DNA of 64,000 bases from Blautia sp. An81. Lineage in GTDB: Bacteria > Bacillota > Clostridia > Lachnospirales > Lachnospiraceae. The notes below the pieces were generated by a model. It saw only the letters and a program-made list of their open reading frames with translations. It ran no database searches and was not told the origin of the DNA. Location of the stretch: positions 1-64,000 of the forward strand of contig NZ_NFHH01000002.1 in NCBI RefSeq assembly GCF_002161285.1, read 5' to 3'. Shown one piece after another: positions 54,505 through 61,461 of the stretch; the stretch's first letter is position 1; each line of letters begins with the position of its first letter. The position numbers and the translations under genes were made by a program.

Positions 54505-54888
54505 ATGAATAAATCAGATGTGATTGACAAAGAAAATTATATTCCAGGAGAACCTATTTTTACCGGGGATATTGATATCCCAGGGATGACAGAAGAAACT
54601 CTTAGATATCATTTAAAAAAGCTTACTGACAGCGGAAGCATATCTCTTACTGGTGTGTATCTGGTTACCTTTTCAATTGTGGGACCGATTCTGGGACCAT
54701 TGTTTGATAAGTATAATCTTCACAGGAAGAACTTGTCCCGCATGCTGGAAGATACGGGAACCGTCTTTTCGCCTATTATTCCATGGAGCAATATCTCTAT
54801 CTTTATCCTGGGAACGCTGGGAGTCAGTTCCTTTGAATATGCCACAATCCTTGAAGACACTTGGATTGTGGCATTTCCTGCGTTATGA
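54505..54888 (+). pseudogene. Chimeric frame: winged-helix-like start joined to NhaC antiporter 3' fragment
   Basis: The first ~47 residues end in a winged-helix-like TEETLRYHLKKLTDSGSI. From SLTGVYLVTFSIVG onward the sequence matches the C-terminal part of NhaC-type Na+/H+ antiporters (LHRKNLSRMLEDTGTVFSP, IPWSNISIFILGTLGV). The parts are joined in frame by deletion. The 127-residue product has neither a full DNA-binding domain nor a transporter. No clear ribosome site precedes the ATG. Confidence 0.65.
54839..54877 (+). terminator. Terminator of the former nhaC gene
   Basis: A perfect 12-bp stem ATGCCACAATCC (54839-54850) / GGATTGTGGCAT (54863-54874), followed by a short T-run. Confidence 0.7.
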
Positions 54889-54990: not shown

Positions 54991-55419
54991 GTGAAAAATA
55001 ATGAAAAATTCCAGACGGATGTGGAAATGGTTCCCAAGGCTCTCCGGGACCAGGCCCAGACCAGGGAGCCGGAAGAGGAAGCAATTGGACTTTATAGGAA
55101 ATTTACTACTACAAAACAAGAGCCTGTGCGGCTGGCAGCGGCCCTTCGTGGATTTTTTCTGCCTGAGGCAGAAGACCAGGAGAAAGAGGCCTATGGTATA
55201 TATCTGAAAAGCAGGATCCGCCCGGCAGTAGAAGCCCTGATTGACGGCGATGATGTAGAAAAGCTGGAAGAACTGGAGTCTCTGGGCTGGTTGGATGGAA
55301 AGAATCTGGACAGTTTTATCCGGATTGCCAGACAGAAGCAGAAAAACGCTGCACTGGTATGGTTCTTACATTTGAAAAAAGAAAAGAACGGCTTTAAAGA
55401 CAGGGATTTTTCCCTTTAG
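54991..55419 (+). CDS. Unknown protein, first gene of the VWA/MoxR/Hsp70 operon
   Basis: A 142-residue acidic helical protein with no recognised domain (YRKFTTTKQEPVRLAAALRG; LEELESLGWLDGKNLDSFIR). The GTG start has AAGGAG 9 bases upstream. It is 23 bases before the VWA-like gene and the sizes and spacing fit one operon. It may be an adaptor or substrate-recognition component of the chaperone/ATPase set; that is inferred from position only. Confidence 0.55.
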   Translation: MKNNEKFQTDVEMVPKALRDQAQTREPEEEAIGLYRKFTTTKQEPVRLAAALRGFFLPEAEDQEKEAYGIYLKSRIRPAVEALIDGDDVEKLEELESLGWLDGKNLDSFIRIARQKQKNAALVWFLHLKKEKNGFKDRDFSL

Positions 55420-55442
55420 CAGTATGAAGGCAGGTGAGAGGA

Positions 55443-56786
55443 ATGGACGGGATATTTGAGGAAAGACAGCAGGAGGAGGCTCGGAAGCGCCGGGAGGACC
55501 TGGGAATCCGGATACTGCAGAACTGCCGGAATGAGCTGTATTCTTATTTTCCTTATCTGGACGGGGCATTTGCCGGTCTGCCATACCGGCCACGGGAAAA
55601 GGACAGGACTATAGGTACAGATGGTGAGTATCTTTATTTTTCGCCGGACTTCCTAATCTGGAAATACAGGGAAAATCCCCGGAGCATCCGGCGGGGATAT
55701 CTGCATATGCTTCTACACTGTCTGTATCTCCATCCTTTTTACGGAGAAACCTTTCCGCCAGGGGAATGGAAGGACAGAGAGAGATGGAATCTGGCCTGGG
55801 ATATGTGGGTGGAAGAAATCATAGAGAGAGAACAGATACCTGACCTTTCGCCAGGGAGAGATCCTATACGGGAACAATGTTTTGGGATTATGAGAGGACA
55901 GTCTCTGTCAGCAGAGAAAATATATCATATGCTGGAAGCAGGAAGATTTCCTTATACTGCTAAGGAACTTCACAGGGCTTTTTCTTTTGATGATCATCGA
56001 TGCTGGGAGAAGAAAAAGCAGGAGAAAAAAGGAGCAGGGACCAGAAAAAAATGGGAGGAGATCCGTTCTCTTACCGGACAGAAAAAGCAGCAGAAAAAGA
56101 AAAGAGCAGGAACCCACAGTGGATCTGATGAGGAGGAAGTGGAAGTACGGTTTCGGAGAAAGTATGACTACCGAAAGTTCCTGAAACGATTTGCAGTGCC
56201 AAGGGAAGAGGTAGAGCTGGATACAGAGAGTTTTGATTATATTTTTTATAATCTGGGTATGGAGCGGTATGGGAATACTCCTTTAATCGAGCCCTTAGAA
56301 TATAAAGAGGTGAACCGGCTGGAAGAATTAGTTATTGCCATTGACACGTCCAGTTCCTGTTCAGCGGAAAGGGTCCAGGGATTTCTGGGGGAGACCTATG
56401 GGATACTGGAGGAAAAGGAGAACTTTTTTCGGAAGATGAAGGTCTATCTAATCCAATGCGACAGCTATATTCAGGATGTGAAGGTCATCCATTCTGAGGG
56501 AGAGTGGAGGGCCTACAGTAGAAATATCAAGATCCGGGGCAGAGGCGGTACAGATTTTCGTCCGGTGTTCCAATATGTCCGTGAGCAGCAGGAAAAGAAG
56601 GAAATCCGGAATCTGAAGGCCCTTATCTATTTTACAGATGGAGACGGGATTTATCCTCAGAGTAAGCCGGATTATGAAACTGCATTTGTATTTCTGGAGA
56701 AGACGGCCAAAATGGATATGGTGCCGGACTGGGCTTATAAACTGGTCGTTCCGGCAAAGACAGGGAAACAAGAGGGAGCACTATGA
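55443..56786 (+). CDS. VWA-like domain protein (DUF2201-type)
   Basis: A 447-residue cytosolic protein. The N-terminal half carries a histidine-rich motif (LHMLLHCLYLHPF near 85) and a tryptophan-rich stretch (WNLAWDMWVEEII), as in the putative metallopeptidase domain of this family. A lysine-rich linker follows, then a VWA-like domain with MIDAS residues AIDTSSSCS near 298, GGTDFRP near 361 and YFTDGDG near 393. Such proteins work with MoxR AAA+ ATPases, here the next gene, which overlaps by 4 bases. Confidence 0.8.
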   Translation: MDGIFEERQQEEARKRREDLGIRILQNCRNELYSYFPYLDGAFAGLPYRPREKDRTIGTDGEYLYFSPDFLIWKYRENPRSIRRGYLHMLLHCLYLHPFYGETFPPGEWKDRERWNLAWDMWVEEIIEREQIPDLSPGRDPIREQCFGIMRGQSLSAEKIYHMLEAGRFPYTAKELHRAFSFDDHRCWEKKKQEKKGAGTRKKWEEIRSLTGQKKQQKKKRAGTHSGSDEEEVEVRFRRKYDYRKFLKRFAVPREEVELDTESFDYIFYNLGMERYGNTPLIEPLEYKEVNRLEELVIAIDTSSSCSAERVQGFLGETYGILEEKENFFRKMKVYLIQCDSYIQDVKVIHSEGEWRAYSRNIKIRGRGGTDFRPVFQYVREQQEKKEIRNLKALIYFTDGDGIYPQSKPDYETAFVFLEKTAKMDMVPDWAYKLVVPAKTGKQEGAL

Positions 56787-58309
56787 ACATAAAAGAGGCA
56801 AAAACAGAGATTATCAATACTATTCGAGCATATAACAAGAAAGACGACCTGGGATGCTACACCTTTCCTTTGGTAAGGCAGAGGCCTATTCTCCTTATGG
56901 GACCTCCCGGAATCGGAAAGACCGCCATTATGGAGCAGGCTGCCCGGGAATGCAGAGTAGGACTGGTAGCTTACACCATTACTCACCATACCCGGCAGAG
57001 CGCTATTGGACTTCCACACATTGAGACGAAAATGTATCAGGGAAAAGAAGTTAGTGTTACAGAATATACCCTCAGCGAAATTATTGCTTCCGTGTATCGG
57101 TGCATGGAGGACACAGGAAACAAAGAAGGGATTCTCTTTATCGACGAGATTAACTGTGTATCAGAAACTCTGGCGCCGACCATGCTCCAGTTTCTTCAGA
57201 ATAAGACTTTCGGAAGTCATAAGGTGCCCAGAGGGTGGATTATTGTTGCAGCAGGAAACCCTCCGCAGTATAACAAATCCGTCCGGGAATTTGACATTGT
57301 TACTTTGGACAGAGTGCGTAAGATTGACGTAGAAGCAGACTGTGACGTATGGATGGAGTATGCCTGCCGCCAGGAAGTCCATCAGGCAATCCTATCCTAT
57401 CTGAGGATTAAGAAAGAAAATTTCTATTCTGTGGAAAACACCGTAGACGGAAAGTTTTTCGTCACAGCCAGAGGCTGGGAAGATTTGTCAGAAATCCTGA
57501 AAAGCTATGAAGCGTTCCAGATTCCTATAACGGAGGCTTTAGTCAGTCAGTATCTTCAGAAGGAAGAGACGGCCAGGGATTTTACAGCCTATTATCAGCT
57601 GTACCGAAAATATGGAACAGATTATGGGATTACGGATATACTGGAAGGCAGCCTTTCAGACAGAGACTACGAGGAAAAGGCGGCTATGGCTGGGAAAGGC
57701 GGTTTTGAAGAGAGGTTTACGGTAGTGAACCTTCTGATGGGAGCTCTTCATACCTCCTTTGCCGGCTTTGCAGGAAGAGAAGGAAAGCTTATCAGCCTTC
57801 ACGAAGCCCTGGGCTATCTGAAAAACTATGTCCGGGAACACGGAGAAATCCAGGACATAGAGGCCTTTATCCAGAACCGAAGGAACAGTATGGAAGTGAA
57901 GATAGAAGCAGGATTGATGACGGAGAAAGAAATCGGAAAAGAAAACTGGGTGATTGGAAAGCTGGAAGAATATTGCCTGAACCTGAAAAAAGAACATATC
58001 CGGAAATCTTCAGAAGGATTTGAAAGGATTAAAGAGTATTTCAGCAGAGAGACTCATGAGAGAAGCAAGGAGATAGAGAAAATCCTGGAACAGACAGAAA
58101 GAGCCTTTAGATTTGCAGAGAAGTCCTTTGGAGACGGACAGGATATGGTACTTTTTGTATCCGGCTTGACCCAGGACACTCTGGCTATGGATTTCCTCAG
58201 CCTTCATGAAAGTCCGCTGTATATGAAATGGAGCGAAAAGCTTCTTTACAGGAAGGAAGAGGAAAAGCTTCTGGAAGAATGCAGGAAGGAAGAAAGCATG
58301 CTGGAATAG
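56783..58309 (+). CDS. MoxR-family AAA+ ATPase
   Basis: A 508-residue AAA+ ATPase: Walker A GPPGIGKTA near 37, Walker B ILFIDEINC near 114, sensor 1 AAGNPP near 154 and an arginine-finger region near 172. A long helical C-terminus follows. It starts by ATGA overlap with the VWA gene, so the two are coupled. MoxR/VWA pairs act like chaperones that remodel or activate other complexes; the Hsp70 and J-domain genes downstream support a protein-remodelling role. Confidence 0.87.
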   Translation: MNIKEAKTEIINTIRAYNKKDDLGCYTFPLVRQRPILLMGPPGIGKTAIMEQAARECRVGLVAYTITHHTRQSAIGLPHIETKMYQGKEVSVTEYTLSEIIASVYRCMEDTGNKEGILFIDEINCVSETLAPTMLQFLQNKTFGSHKVPRGWIIVAAGNPPQYNKSVREFDIVTLDRVRKIDVEADCDVWMEYACRQEVHQAILSYLRIKKENFYSVENTVDGKFFVTARGWEDLSEILKSYEAFQIPITEALVSQYLQKEETARDFTAYYQLYRKYGTDYGITDILEGSLSDRDYEEKAAMAGKGGFEERFTVVNLLMGALHTSFAGFAGREGKLISLHEALGYLKNYVREHGEIQDIEAFIQNRRNSMEVKIEAGLMTEKEIGKENWVIGKLEEYCLNLKKEHIRKSSEGFERIKEYFSRETHERSKEIEKILEQTERAFRFAEKSFGDGQDMVLFVSGLTQDTLAMDFLSLHESPLYMKWSEKLLYRKEEEKLLEECRKEESMLE

Positions 58310-58393
58310 CAGACGCTTTTCTTATAAATGATGACATGGCCGGTTTTTGGCTGAAAAGCCGCCGGTATTAGAAAGACAGGAAGGGGGGATTTT

Positions 58394-60193
58394 ATGTCAT
58401 ATCTTTTAGGCATTGACCTGGGAACTACCAATTCCCTGGGCTGCGTATATAAAGATGGAAGGATTCAGCTGATTCCCAATCGCTACGGTTCCTATCTTAC
58501 GCCCAGCGTAGTCAGTGTAGATGAAAACCAGGAAATTATTGTAGGTGAAATTGCAAAGGAACGGCTTATTACCGCTCCTGAAAGAACGGCCAGTTCTTTC
58601 AAGCGGTTTATGGGAGAAGAGAAGACCTTTCATCTGGGAGGCCTTAACTTTACCCCGGAGGAACTGTCCAGTTTTGTGGTCCGCTCTATTGTGGAGGATG
58701 CCCAGGCTTATCTGGGAGAGGAGATTGAGGAAGTGATCATTTCGGTTCCTGCTTATTTCCACGACAAGCAGCGGTATGCCACGAAAAAGGCAGGGCTGCT
58801 GGCCGGGGTCCAGGTCCATCGGCTGATCAATGAGCCCAGTGCGGCGGCTTTGGCCTCCTATATGGATAACGGAGAAGAGCAGCTGTTTCTGGTCTTTGAT
58901 TTCGGAGGAGGAACTCTGGACGTATCCATTGTGGACTGCTTTGAAAATGTGGTGGAAATTGAGGCTGTGGCAGGAAATAACCATCTGGGAGGGGATGATT
59001 TCCATCAGATTATGGTGGAAGCCTTTCTGAAAGAGCATGGCATTCCAAAGGGTGATGTGTCCAAAAAGGATTTGGCGGTACTGGAAAGACAGGCGGAAAA
59101 ATGCAAGCGGGAATTGAGCGACGCCCAGGAAAGCAGGATGACTGCCTGGATAAAGGGGCAGGAGTATACCAGTGTATATACCAACCGCCGGCTGGTGGAG
59201 GAAAGCGCCGGAATCTTCTATAAGATTAAGGAGGTGCTGAACCATGCGGTAAAAAGTGCCCAGATACGTCCGGAGGATTTGTCTGATATTGTTATGGCAG
59301 GAGGTTCCAGCAAGATGCCTGTTGTCACATCCTATGTATCTCACTTGTTCCACCGGGAGCCTCAGATTAATCTGAACAGTGATGAAATGATTGTCCGGGG
59401 ATTGGGGTATCTCTGCGGCGTTAAGGCAAGGGAACAGTCGATCAAAGACTATGTACTGACGGATATCTGCCCATTTTCTCTGGGAACAGCCACCAAAAAT
59501 GCCAGCGATGCCAGCAACCCTTATTTTACCCCGATCATTCCCAGAAATACCGTGCTCCCCTGTTCCAGAGTCCATAGATTTTACACGGCGGAAGACCATC
59601 AGAGACAGGTGACCTTCCCGGTGCTTCAGGGGGAACATGTCTATGCCAGAGACAACCGGAAACTGGCGGAGTATACCTTGACGGTTCCTGATGGTCCTGC
59701 GGGACAGGAGGCTTTGGATGTACGGTTTACCTATGATATTGACGGAATCCTTCTGGCGGATATACAGGTGGTCTCTACAGGCCATACTATCAGCAGCGTG
59801 GTGTCTCAGACCGTGGATGACGAGAGGCTCCAGGCCAGGATGAAGGAACTGGAGAAGCTGAAGGTACATCCCCGGGAGGTTACAGAGAACAAGCTCCTCC
59901 TCAGCCGGCTGACGACACTCTGTGAGGAATGCCCTCCCAGCCAGAGGGAATATTTTGCAGGCCTTATCGCTCTTTTTGAGAAGGTTCTGGAAGAACAGAA
60001 TCCCAGAAAGATTAAAAAATACGGGGAACAGATTCAGGACACCATTGATAACTTTTCCCTGGGAGAGGCTTTGGATGACTTTGATTTCTGGGGAGATTTT
60101 TATCAGGAAGAGGGAGAAGAAGAGAAGGAACAGGAGGAGAAACCAGAAGAAGATCTGGATTTTATGGAGTTTAGTAAAAAATGGACAAATTAA
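58394..60193 (+). CDS. Hsp70-family chaperone (divergent DnaK)
   Basis: A 599-residue Hsp70. The ATPase domain is complete: GIDLGTTNSLGCVY at the N-terminus, SVPAYFHDKQR near 120, FDFGGGTLDVSIVD near 171 and AGGSSKMPVV near 302. The substrate-binding part is present (residues about 360-500), and the C-terminus ends in an acidic Glu-rich tail instead of the EEVD-like end. It is a specialised paralogue, not the main DnaK, as no grpE or hrcA is nearby. It overlaps the J-domain gene by 13 bases. Confidence 0.88.
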   Translation: MSYLLGIDLGTTNSLGCVYKDGRIQLIPNRYGSYLTPSVVSVDENQEIIVGEIAKERLITAPERTASSFKRFMGEEKTFHLGGLNFTPEELSSFVVRSIVEDAQAYLGEEIEEVIISVPAYFHDKQRYATKKAGLLAGVQVHRLINEPSAAALASYMDNGEEQLFLVFDFGGGTLDVSIVDCFENVVEIEAVAGNNHLGGDDFHQIMVEAFLKEHGIPKGDVSKKDLAVLERQAEKCKRELSDAQESRMTAWIKGQEYTSVYTNRRLVEESAGIFYKIKEVLNHAVKSAQIRPEDLSDIVMAGGSSKMPVVTSYVSHLFHREPQINLNSDEMIVRGLGYLCGVKAREQSIKDYVLTDICPFSLGTATKNASDASNPYFTPIIPRNTVLPCSRVHRFYTAEDHQRQVTFPVLQGEHVYARDNRKLAEYTLTVPDGPAGQEALDVRFTYDIDGILLADIQVVSTGHTISSVVSQTVDDERLQARMKELEKLKVHPREVTENKLLLSRLTTLCEECPPSQREYFAGLIALFEKVLEEQNPRKIKKYGEQIQDTIDNFSLGEALDDFDFWGDFYQEEGEEEKEQEEKPEEDLDFMEFSKKWTN

Positions 60194-61461
60194 CAGCCCA
60201 AAAGGTTCTGGGCGTCAGCCCCGGAGTTTCGAAAAAGGAGATTAAGAAAGCTTATGCGGCAATGCTCCGTATGTATCACCCTGAGGATTATCCTCAGGAA
60301 TTCCAGCGGATACAGGAAGCTTATGAGGTTTTGATAAAAGGAAACGGAGACGGCGGAGGTTTCTGGGAAGAAAAGGAAGCGGATATGGAAACCGGGGTTC
60401 CCCAAGAGAGACAGGAAGAAAGCCAGAACCGGGAAAGTGAATTCGAGGCGGAAGAATCAGGCCAGCAGGAGAATGAAGAGGAGCCTGATACAGAGGAGCC
60501 GGGGCAGCAGGAACAGGAGCCTCTGAACTGGAAAGAATTGGAGCAGGAGGAATCTTTCCGCCAGGCAGGAGACAACTGGGAAACCTGGAAACGACAGCGG
60601 GAAGAGGAGCTTCGCAGGGAAGAAGAGGAAAGAAGGAAGTTTCAGGAAGAGGAAGCCCGCAGAGCCCGGCAGCAGGAAGAGCGTTACCGCAGGGCCAGAC
60701 AGGAAGAAGAACTGAGAAAAGCCCGGGAGAAAATAGACTTTGAAAAGATTGAATGGAAGGCCCGGGAGGAAAAGGAGCTGAAAGACCAGGCTAATATAGC
60801 CCTGGCCCTCAAGGATCTGGAAATCATCCTTACCACAAATTCGAAAAAACACCGGCTGAAATGCTATGAGGACTTCTTTGCCAAAGAAGAATATAAAGAC
60901 CTGCTTTTTGACCCAGAGTGTGTGGAAGGAGTCTGCAGACTCCTGGAGAATACTCACCTGAAACGGGAAGTCTATGAGATATTCGCCAGAGAATATCACA
61001 TGCGCGAATATCAGCCTGAACAGTTAAAGCCCGGTGCCAGAAAGCTGTATCATATCCTGGATTCTCACTGTAAGTTTAAGAAAAAAAGACGTAAATATTA
61101 TATTGGCGGATGGATTTTTGTAGCGGTATTGGTGCTGCTGAGAAGTATGATGAGAGCTACAGATGACAACGACTGGTTCTACTTTCTTCTTGCTCTGGTG
61201 ATAGCGGGCTTGTACTGGGGATACAGCCGTCTGCTGAAATATTATTCCAGATGGCGGATACATATTGTCTACAGTCTGCTGATCACAGTCAGCCAGTTTA
61301 TCATGCTTATGGCAGAAGCCTATACGCCTCTTCTGGGAAATCAGGAGGCGGGAGATACCTTCGGGGCTTTGGTCTTTACCGGAGGGTGCCTGTATTTTCT
61401 GATAACAGTGGCTGCTTATATAATCACCAGAATCCTACATAGATTTAAGAGACATGGATAA
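60181..61461 (+). CDS. Membrane-anchored J-domain protein with HPE in place of HPD
   Basis: A 426-residue co-chaperone. Residues 1-55 form a J-domain (KVLGVSPGVSKKEIKKAYAA; EFQRIQEAYEVL), but the HPD loop that activates Hsp70 reads HPED, so the aspartate is displaced. A long Glu/Arg/Gln-rich coiled coil (60-200) follows, then a helical region and four C-terminal membrane segments (about 310-420). It is coupled to the Hsp70 gene by overlap and would recruit it to the membrane. Confidence 0.82.
   Translation: MDKLTAQKVLGVSPGVSKKEIKKAYAAMLRMYHPEDYPQEFQRIQEAYEVLIKGNGDGGGFWEEKEADMETGVPQERQEESQNRESEFEAEESGQQENEEEPDTEEPGQQEQEPLNWKELEQEESFRQAGDNWETWKRQREEELRREEEERRKFQEEEARRARQQEERYRRARQEEELRKAREKIDFEKIEWKAREEKELKDQANIALALKDLEIILTTNSKKHRLKCYEDFFAKEEYKDLLFDPECVEGVCRLLENTHLKREVYEIFAREYHMREYQPEQLKPGARKLYHILDSHCKFKKKRRKYYIGGWIFVAVLVLLRSMMRATDDNDWFYFLLALVIAGLYWGYSRLLKYYSRWRIHIVYSLLITVSQFIMLMAEAYTPLLGNQEAGDTFGALVFTGGCLYFLITVAAYIITRILHRFKRHG

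What the first reader, a model, noticed from the sequence alone, without database searches (positions are those of the whole stretch)
54991..61461. Operon joining VWA, MoxR ATPase, Hsp70 and a membrane J-protein with an altered HPD motif
Five genes with overlaps or short gaps combine two protein-remodelling machines: a MoxR/VWA pair and an Hsp70/J pair. The J-domain reads HPED instead of HPD, which in canonical pairs abolishes Hsp70 activation, and its C-terminus has membrane segments. MoxR-VWA genes with chaperones have been noted among nucleotide-dependent conflict and stress systems, but this combination and the first gene (54991) are not assigned a function that I know of.
Basis: partly seen in the sequence, partly recalled or inferred. 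Interest (0 to 1): 0.7.

Follow-up and report, generated by a model that had tools for sequence, protein, structure and literature searches.

The report
Two chaperone modules sharing one operon
A bacterium carries two known kinds of protein-remodelling machine side by side, and the "faulty" J-protein motif that looked odd is in fact the usual motif for partners of this kind of Hsp70.

Summary
The five genes lie where stated, at most 84 bp apart. The Hsp70 is HscC-type and the J-protein is its DjlB/DjlC-type membrane partner. E. coli DjlB and DjlC also read HPE, and a review reports that DjlC stimulates HscC, so HPED does not mean a dead J-domain. Of 43 HscC-type genes with a readable neighbouring J-protein, 1 has canonical HPD (HPE 19, NPE 13, SPE 3, seven others once each). 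Next to DnaK, 50 of 52 have HPD. The first three genes are a separate MoxR/VWA module. Gene 1 is the helical domain usually found at the C-terminus of its leucine-rich-repeat partner. The VWA protein's "metallopeptidase" part lacks the catalytic glutamate. The five-gene order was found in 4 of 20 genomes of the genus. Three relatives keep the MoxR/VWA genes without the Hsp70/J pair, one with a deletion scar. None of 23 other HscC loci fetched from a class sample lies beside MoxR/VWA genes. So: two separable machines, probably on one transcript, link unproven. The new lead is natural loss of the HPD histidine (NPE, SPE) in HscC partners.

The parts
54991..55419 (+). Gene 1 (w1): 142-aa protein; stand-alone form of a domain that partner proteins of this MoxR/VWA module carry, usually at their C-terminus
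   Evidence: No match in Pfam, NCBIfam, PADLOC or PHROGs. An iterated profile finds the domain beside the MoxR gene in 12 of 17 class-sample loci; direct BLAST with w1 at E 1e-5 finds it in 0 of the same 17. Fused in front of the VWA protein in two genomes. Two of the longer proteins were scanned and both carry LRR_5. Helical by a low-confidence model.
55434..56786 (+). Gene 2 (w2): DUF2201_N + DUF2201, VWA-like protein with a metallopeptidase-like N-terminal domain that lacks the catalytic Glu
   Evidence: Pfam; MIDAS residues kept in 29 of 29 aligned members; HExxH glutamate absent in 27 of 27 that have the region.
55704..55718 (+). HMLLH: HxxxH of the metallopeptidase-like domain without the catalytic Glu (residues 91-95 of w2)
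56340..56357 (+). MIDAS DxSxS region of the VWA domain (IDTSSS, residues 303-308 of w2)
56783..58309 (+). Gene 3 (w3): MoxR-like AAA ATPase
   Evidence: Pfam AAA/AAA_5; Walker A and B kept in 30 of 30 aligned members
56900..56923 (+). Walker A GPPGIGKT
57134..57154 (+). Walker B region LFIDEIN
58394..60193 (+). Gene 4 (w4): HscC-type Hsp70
   Evidence: 34.5% identical to E. coli HscC over 551 columns, E 9e-113; inside the HscC group, apart from DnaK and HscA (quick tree)
60181..61461 (+). Gene 5 (w5): DjlB/DjlC-like J-protein: J-domain, charged linker, conserved region, C-terminal membrane segments
60277..60288 (+). H33-P34-E35-D36 motif of the J-domain
   Evidence: Direct reading; HPE in E. 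coli DjlB and DjlC
61096..61425 (+). Membrane-spanning region of w5 (segments at residues 306-324, 360-378, 397-415; one orthologue shows four)
   Evidence: Kyte-Doolittle scan

Best explanation
The locus is two known kinds of chaperone module on one probable transcript. Module A (54991-58309) is a MoxR AAA+ ATPase with a VWA co-chaperone whose peptidase-like N-terminus lacks its catalytic glutamate, plus a small adaptor-like protein. It would use ATP to remodel a client that the VWA/adaptor side selects. Module B (58394-61461) is an HscC-type Hsp70 with its own DjlB/DjlC-type J-protein. The J-protein sits in the membrane, recruits the Hsp70 there and triggers ATP hydrolysis through an HPE motif, as a private pair separate from DnaK/DnaJ. 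Shown by sequence: composition, HscC membership, motif, hydrophobic segments, separability of the modules. Inferred: co-transcription, activity of the HPED J-domain, the clients, and any cooperation between A and B.
For: w4 lies inside an HscC group that is one side of a branch with SH-aLRT 100 against DnaK and HscA (46 HscC, 11 DnaK, 1 HscA rows, quick tree). DjlB and DjlC read HPET; [quoted passage not shown] HscC-linked J-proteins: 1 of 43 HPD, against 50 of 52 beside DnaK. Stretches around 17 class-sample MoxR loci hold no Hsp70 like w4, and stretches around 23 HscC loci hold no MoxR or VWA gene (some stretches are cut by contig ends). Absence of module B in G105 and G117 and a deletion scar in G114. 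Overlapping or closely spaced genes; low dN/dS for all five.
Against: No experiment on these proteins. dS is above 1, so dN/dS is rough. In w4 the residue equivalent to DnaK Q378, one of two contacts of the HPD aspartate, is Leu, so activity by analogy with E. coli HscC (Gln kept) is not assured. Two NBD deletions described for HscC are also in this organism's own DnaK and so do not diagnose HscC. w4 and its orthologues are on a long branch, several rows have odd composition or long branches, and no bootstrap was run. The 84-bp gap between modules could hold a promoter; the scan finds no more sites than shuffles. G105 and G117 may never have had the pair, since the branching order is unresolved.
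Confidence: 0.77

Rival explanations
1. One coupled machine: the membrane J-protein/HscC pair loads or holds a membrane client for the MoxR/VWA ATPase, so the five genes act together in the few species that have them.
For: Gene order kept in 4 of 4 genomes that have the pair at this place, neighbours at most 84 bp apart in the window. MoxR/VWA pairs such as RavA-ViaA and NorQ-NorD act on membrane or metal enzymes (starts of abstracts in a listing); HscC and DjlB/DjlC are linked to the membrane and to Cd sensitivity (PMC8215388).
Against: 3 of the 7 genomes with the orthologous MoxR gene at this place (window counted) lack the pair; no such neighbourhood in stretches around 23 HscC and 17 MoxR loci elsewhere in the class; in the family part of the class sample (13 genomes, 5 with HscC, 10 with the MoxR gene) 4 have both, against 3.8 expected (counted).
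Confidence: 0.22
2. w5 is a pseudo-J-protein (type IV): HPED no longer triggers ATP hydrolysis and w5 only recruits or inhibits the Hsp70.
For: HPD changes such as D to N or H to Q abolish stimulation in canonical pairs (PMC8215388, PMC13254874); w4 has Leu at the Q378 position.
Against: HPE is shared by DjlC, which stimulates HscC; the R167 equivalent is kept in w4 and in 27 of 29 HscC rows compared; the motif is identical in the window and its three orthologues.
Confidence: 0.1
3. A biological-conflict (anti-phage) system of the MoxR/VWA ternary type.
For: MoxR-vWA cores are part of predicted conflict systems (PMC7159879, passages). Weak similarity of w3 to the bpMoxR model, below its cut-off (19.5 against 27 bits).
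Against: PADLOC: nothing for w1, w2 and w5, weak AAA matches for w3 (best E 3e-4) and one weak match for w4 (E 0.0045); no further gene in the operon that Pfam marks as an effector; no plasmid match for w5; DUF2201 is not mentioned in PMC7159879 (0 occurrences).
Confidence: 0.05

Closest known systems
E. coli HscC with DjlB/DjlC (ybeR-djlB, ybeU-djlC, hscC locus)
   Same: Hsp70 of the HscC group; dedicated J-protein with HPE and a C-terminal membrane segment encoded beside it
   Different: w5 has several membrane segments instead of one; no DUF1266 gene in the four five-gene stretches; hscC and J on one strand behind MoxR/VWA genes, while in E. coli hscC faces djlC
MoxR AAA+ with VWA co-chaperone (RavA-ViaA, NorQ-NorD class)
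   Same: Adjacent AAA+ and VWA genes with intact Walker and MIDAS motifs
   Different: DUF2201 architecture with a metallopeptidase-like N-terminus; LRR_5/helical third partner; no PDB relative of the w2 profile found by sequence
Jumbo-phage MoxR and metallopeptidase-vWA pair
   Same: AAA+ gene with a vWA protein fused to an N-terminal metallopeptidase domain (PMC7824862, passage; PHROG families match w2 and w3 at E 9e-42 and 3e-40)
   Different: Chromosomal; catalytic glutamate missing in w2; the authors propose virion assembly and processing for the phage pair. That the PHROG families are the same as the paper's pair was not checked.

Membership tests
HscC-type Hsp70 | Groups with HscC apart from DnaK and HscA | tested here: met
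   SH-aLRT 100 for the HscC side, 46 rows against 11 DnaK and one HscA; quick tree, no bootstrap
HscC-type Hsp70 | Deletion matching DnaK 76-101 and loss of the D211 loop | tested here: inconclusive
   Both present in w4, but also in the organism's own DnaK
HscC-type Hsp70 | Missing salt bridges, no GrpE contact, changes in the L1,2 loop and helix B | not tested
   Described in PMC8215388
DjlB/DjlC-type J-protein | HPE in place of HPD | tested here: met
DjlB/DjlC-type J-protein | C-terminal membrane anchor | tested here: met
   Hydropathy only; three segments in w5 against one in each of DjlB and DjlC
DjlB/DjlC-type J-protein | Stimulates HscC and not DnaK | not testable with these tools
   Needs purified proteins
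DjlB/DjlC-type J-protein | DUF1266 gene next door (seen in E. coli; not a strict criterion) | tested here: not met
   0 of 4 five-gene stretches; 5 of 23 class HscC stretches have one
MoxR/VWA chaperone pair | Intact Walker A and B in the AAA, MIDAS in the VWA, genes adjacent | tested here: met
   30 of 30 and 29 of 29 aligned members; VWA gene in 16 of 17 class stretches with the AAA gene
MoxR/VWA chaperone pair | AAA hexamer that binds the VWA protein | not testable with these tools
   No structure or binding data
Active zinc metallopeptidase | HExxH | tested here: not met
   Glu in 0 of 27 members that have the region
MoxR-vWA conflict systems | bpMoxR domain, or a variable effector | tested here: not met
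   bpMoxR 19.5 bits against a cut-off of 27; no effector domain found by Pfam in the five genes. Other sub-types of these systems were not tested.

The most novel reading that the evidence does not exclude
HscC-type Hsp70s define a second J-domain code: their partner J-proteins have, as a class, given up HPD, mostly for xPE (36 of 43), and in many the histidine itself is gone (NPE, SPE, once each KPE, DKE, DQE, NVD, RPD, DQA, DTA) while still driving their Hsp70. If so, the rule that His and Asp of HPD are needed, with HPE the only tolerated change, holds for DnaK-type Hsp70s only.
Probability: 0.45. Interest if true: 0.62.

Novelty: new variant of a known kind. Interest (0 to 1): 0.38.

Why it matters
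It turns an apparent defect into a rule. In the sample examined, J-proteins beside HscC-type Hsp70s almost never carry HPD, so the motif can help to recognise private Hsp70/J pairs, and natural NPE and SPE forms give ready test cases for what the HPD motif does. It also ties the first gene to a MoxR/VWA partner domain that has no Pfam match, and shows that the five-gene array is a lineage-specific joining of two machines rather than a new system.

Tried and rejected
Rejected: HPED as loss of function (DjlB/DjlC precedent). Rejected: five genes as one conserved system. Rejected: active peptidase. Rejected for lack of support: defence system. Led nowhere: the fold of w1 without an alignment gave mean pLDDT 51, all helices, and was not used for a fold search. 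The PDB profile search found nothing for w2; w3 matched only short stretches of three AAA proteins. The w1-domain profile gave 11 PDB rows, the best at E 6e-8 being protein A fusions in which no single stretch passed on its own; I read this as helix composition. The Pfam scan of 16 w1-domain members gave no match better than E 0.03. The promoter scan found 8 sites against 9.2 expected.

Searches for print: 'HPE motif' with J-domain, 0 papers; HPE, J-domain and HPD as whole words, 2 papers, one with the DjlB/DjlC sentence, the other seen in the listing only; at least three of MoxR, VWA, Hsp70 and J-domain, 8 papers, none with all four; DUF2201, 4 papers, none on its function by title; COG3864, none; MoxR with HscC and operon, 1 paper, listing only. 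Barriot et al. 2020, a survey of bacterial J-proteins cited in PMC8215388, was not found under the DOI that I recalled and may already report the motif census.

17 of the 19 other class genomes with the MoxR gene were fetched (G140 and G274 were not). The 43 pairs include 4 orthologues from the window's genus and several close pairs, so they are not independent; the tree needs at least 7 changes at the first motif position (H against not H) and 4 at the third. In two pairs (E. coli and L114) the J gene is on the other strand, and in L116 it is 658 bases away. The J-domain profile was built from 8 domains, 5 of them HscC-type. The motif triplets were entered by me from the J-domain strings; an alignment check printed positions 2-4 of the motif (one column off) and agrees at positions 2 and 3. 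Several stretches behind one search are cut by contig ends.
Full report
WHAT IS THERE. The five genes are real and placed as stated. Spacing is +14, -4, +84 and -13 bp. A carbohydrate kinase gene (FGGY) follows 146 bp later. Against the same genes in G101, dN/dS is 0.060, 0.075, 0.055, 0.050 and 0.099 for genes 1 to 5. dS is above 1, so these are rough, but all five look like working genes.

THE HSP70/J PAIR. Compared with four E. coli proteins, w4 matches HscC at 34.5% over 551 columns, and the w5 J-domain matches DjlB (E 1e-6) and DjlC (E 2e-5). In a 58-row tree (quick method, no bootstrap) all 46 HscC rows, w4 among them, form one side of a branch with SH-aLRT 100 against 11 DnaK and 1 HscA. 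w4 with its three orthologues sits on a long branch, and the tool flagged other long or oddly composed rows, so its place inside HscC is less sure than its membership. Two NBD deletions that PMC8215388 lists for HscC are present in w4, but also in the organism's own DnaK, so they prove nothing here.

THE MOTIF. E. coli DjlB and DjlC both read HPET. I then asked how general it is. In a class sample of 293 genomes an HscC-type Hsp70 (E at most 1e-105) was found in 19. All 23 such genes other than the window's were fetched, and 22 have a J-protein on the same strand within 300 bases; L070 has none. Adding the window, its 3 orthologues, two more genomes of the genus (L030, L031), E. coli and 14 of the 16 HscC loci of the genome-contig scan gives 43 pairs: HPE 19, NPE 13, SPE 3, and HPD, DKE, DQE, NVD, RPD, DQA, DTA and KPE once each. 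The third letter is E in 38, D in 3 and A in 2. L105 and L109, on contigs of about 3 kb, had no readable partner. As a control, of 64 DnaK loci from the same scan 52 had a J-protein within 1.5 kb, and 50 of the 52 read HPD; the other two read SPD and HPP. Within the window's own genome the three other J-domains found also read HPD.

WHAT THE HSP70 SIDE SHOWS. In DnaK the HPD aspartate contacts R167 and Q378 (PMC8215388, part 1 of section 8). The R167 equivalent is kept in 27 of 29 HscC rows outside E. coli (Cys in L078, Asn in L082). Q378 is kept in 11 of 29 and is Leu in w4. The one HPD-bearing partner (L082) belongs to the Hsp70 with Asn at R167. I saw no one-to-one match between the first motif letter and Q378. 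In w5 the two residues after the conserved Ala-Tyr are Ala-Ala, where the three other J-domains of this genome have Arg-Lys, Arg-Asp and Arg-Lys, and DjlB and DjlC have Leu-Ala (alignment). This fits a pair that has moved away from the DnaK interface.

THE MEMBRANE PART. Three hydrophobic segments in w5 pass the threshold; orthologues show three, three and four. DjlB and DjlC show one each. Of 20 other HscC-linked J-proteins scanned, 13 have at least one segment and 7 have none (L031, L065, L067, L068 and the genome-contig loci were not scanned). A membrane anchor is common, not universal.

THE MOXR/VWA TRIO. In the same class sample the AAA gene (E at most 1e-60) was found in 20 of 293 genomes. 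In 17 fetched stretches the VWA gene is present in 16; in the other the AAA gene is at the contig start. Walker A and B are intact in 30 of 30 aligned members and MIDAS residues in 29 of 29. The HExxH glutamate is missing in 27 of 27 that have the region, so the label 'putative metallopeptidase' does not describe an active enzyme here. Gene 1 has no match in four libraries. A search with it in 100 family genomes found relatives in 7 (E at most 0.001). These and others are domains of about 95 residues, usually at the end of proteins of about 260 to 840 aa beside the same module (in L087 it lies inside). Two such proteins were scanned and carry LRR_5. In two genomes the domain is fused in front of the VWA protein. 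An iterated profile finds it in 12 of 17 class loci, but direct BLAST at E 1e-5 finds it in none of the 17, and the profile was trained on the loci it then found, so this is a description, not an independent test. By name search the module is not described in the held papers, but a MoxR and metallopeptidase-vWA pair of jumbo phages is (PMC7824862, passage), and PHROG families match w2 and w3.

ARE THE TWO MODULES ONE SYSTEM? The J-protein was found in 2 of 100 family genomes, both of the window's genus, and in 4 of 20 genomes of the genus. All four have the five genes in the same order next to the FGGY gene (in G116 the FGGY gene runs off the contig; in G028 an opposite-strand ORF hid genes 1 and 2 in my ORF list, and searches show them). 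Three more genomes have the orthologous AAA gene, 84% identical, without the pair. In G105 and G117 the AAA gene is followed after about 90 bp by the FGGY gene. In G114 about the first ten codons of hscC are followed directly by the sequence that normally follows the J gene: a deletion of the pair as a unit, with a PDDEXK-like ORF beside it. G114 is 76% complete and its contig ends before gene 1, so only the AAA and VWA genes are seen there. An eighth genome, G108, shows only a fragment of the AAA gene. Two further genomes, G102 and G106, have an HscC elsewhere with a 1098-aa J-protein reading NPED. Trees of the AAA, VWA and FGGY genes do not resolve whether G105 and G117 lost the pair or never had it. 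In the class sample 5 genomes have both an HscC and the MoxR gene, and only in the window's are they on one contig. No MoxR or VWA gene was found in the stretches around 23 HscC loci, and no such Hsp70 around 17 MoxR loci. In the family part of that sample (13 genomes) 4 have both, against 3.8 expected. The pair therefore looks like an accessory unit placed behind the trio in one small clade.

MECHANISM. Most likely each module works as its kind does. HscC with a membrane J-protein acts on proteins at the inner face of the membrane. The MoxR/VWA module remodels a dedicated client chosen by the VWA/adaptor side. Co-expression is likely from the spacing; cooperation is possible and untested. For HscC partners the striking fact is the near absence of HPD. 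Whether NPE and SPE forms are active is unknown; Asn or Ser could still offer a hydrogen bond where His bonds to the linker backbone (inference).

VERDICT. Real, conserved in a few species and mostly of known kinds. The combination is a local variant. The interest lies in the motif rule and its test, not in a new five-gene system.

Noticed in passing
54505-54888: Short ORF with an NhaC-type Na+/H+ antiporter fragment after an unrelated N-terminus: looks like a remnant or fused fragment.
   Followed up: no
G000:C1 (L032:8860-12611): A second copy of the LRR_5/w1-domain, VWA and MoxR trio in the same genome, AAA about 50% identical to w3; no Hsp70 in the 19 kb fetched.
   Followed up: partly
L061:2788-3531 and similar places: DUF1266 genes lie near HscC/J pairs in 5 of 23 class stretches, as ybeU and ybeR do in E. 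coli: a possible third partner of HscC systems.
   Followed up: partly
L082: The only HPD-bearing HscC partner sits beside the HscC whose R167 equivalent is Asn.
   Followed up: no
L028:2541-3743: PDDEXK_2-like ORF (E 0.005, below cut-off) beside the scar of the deleted hscC-J pair in G114.
   Followed up: partly
phage records H1-H7: Seven unannotated 'Bacteriophage sp.' records from human faeces hold w3 relatives at 42-59% identity over 84-95% of the query; they may be bacterial contigs filed as phage.
   Followed up: no
L159: Moorella stamsii: a 126-aa J-protein near a divergent DnaK-like Hsp70 reads HPPE.
   Followed up: no
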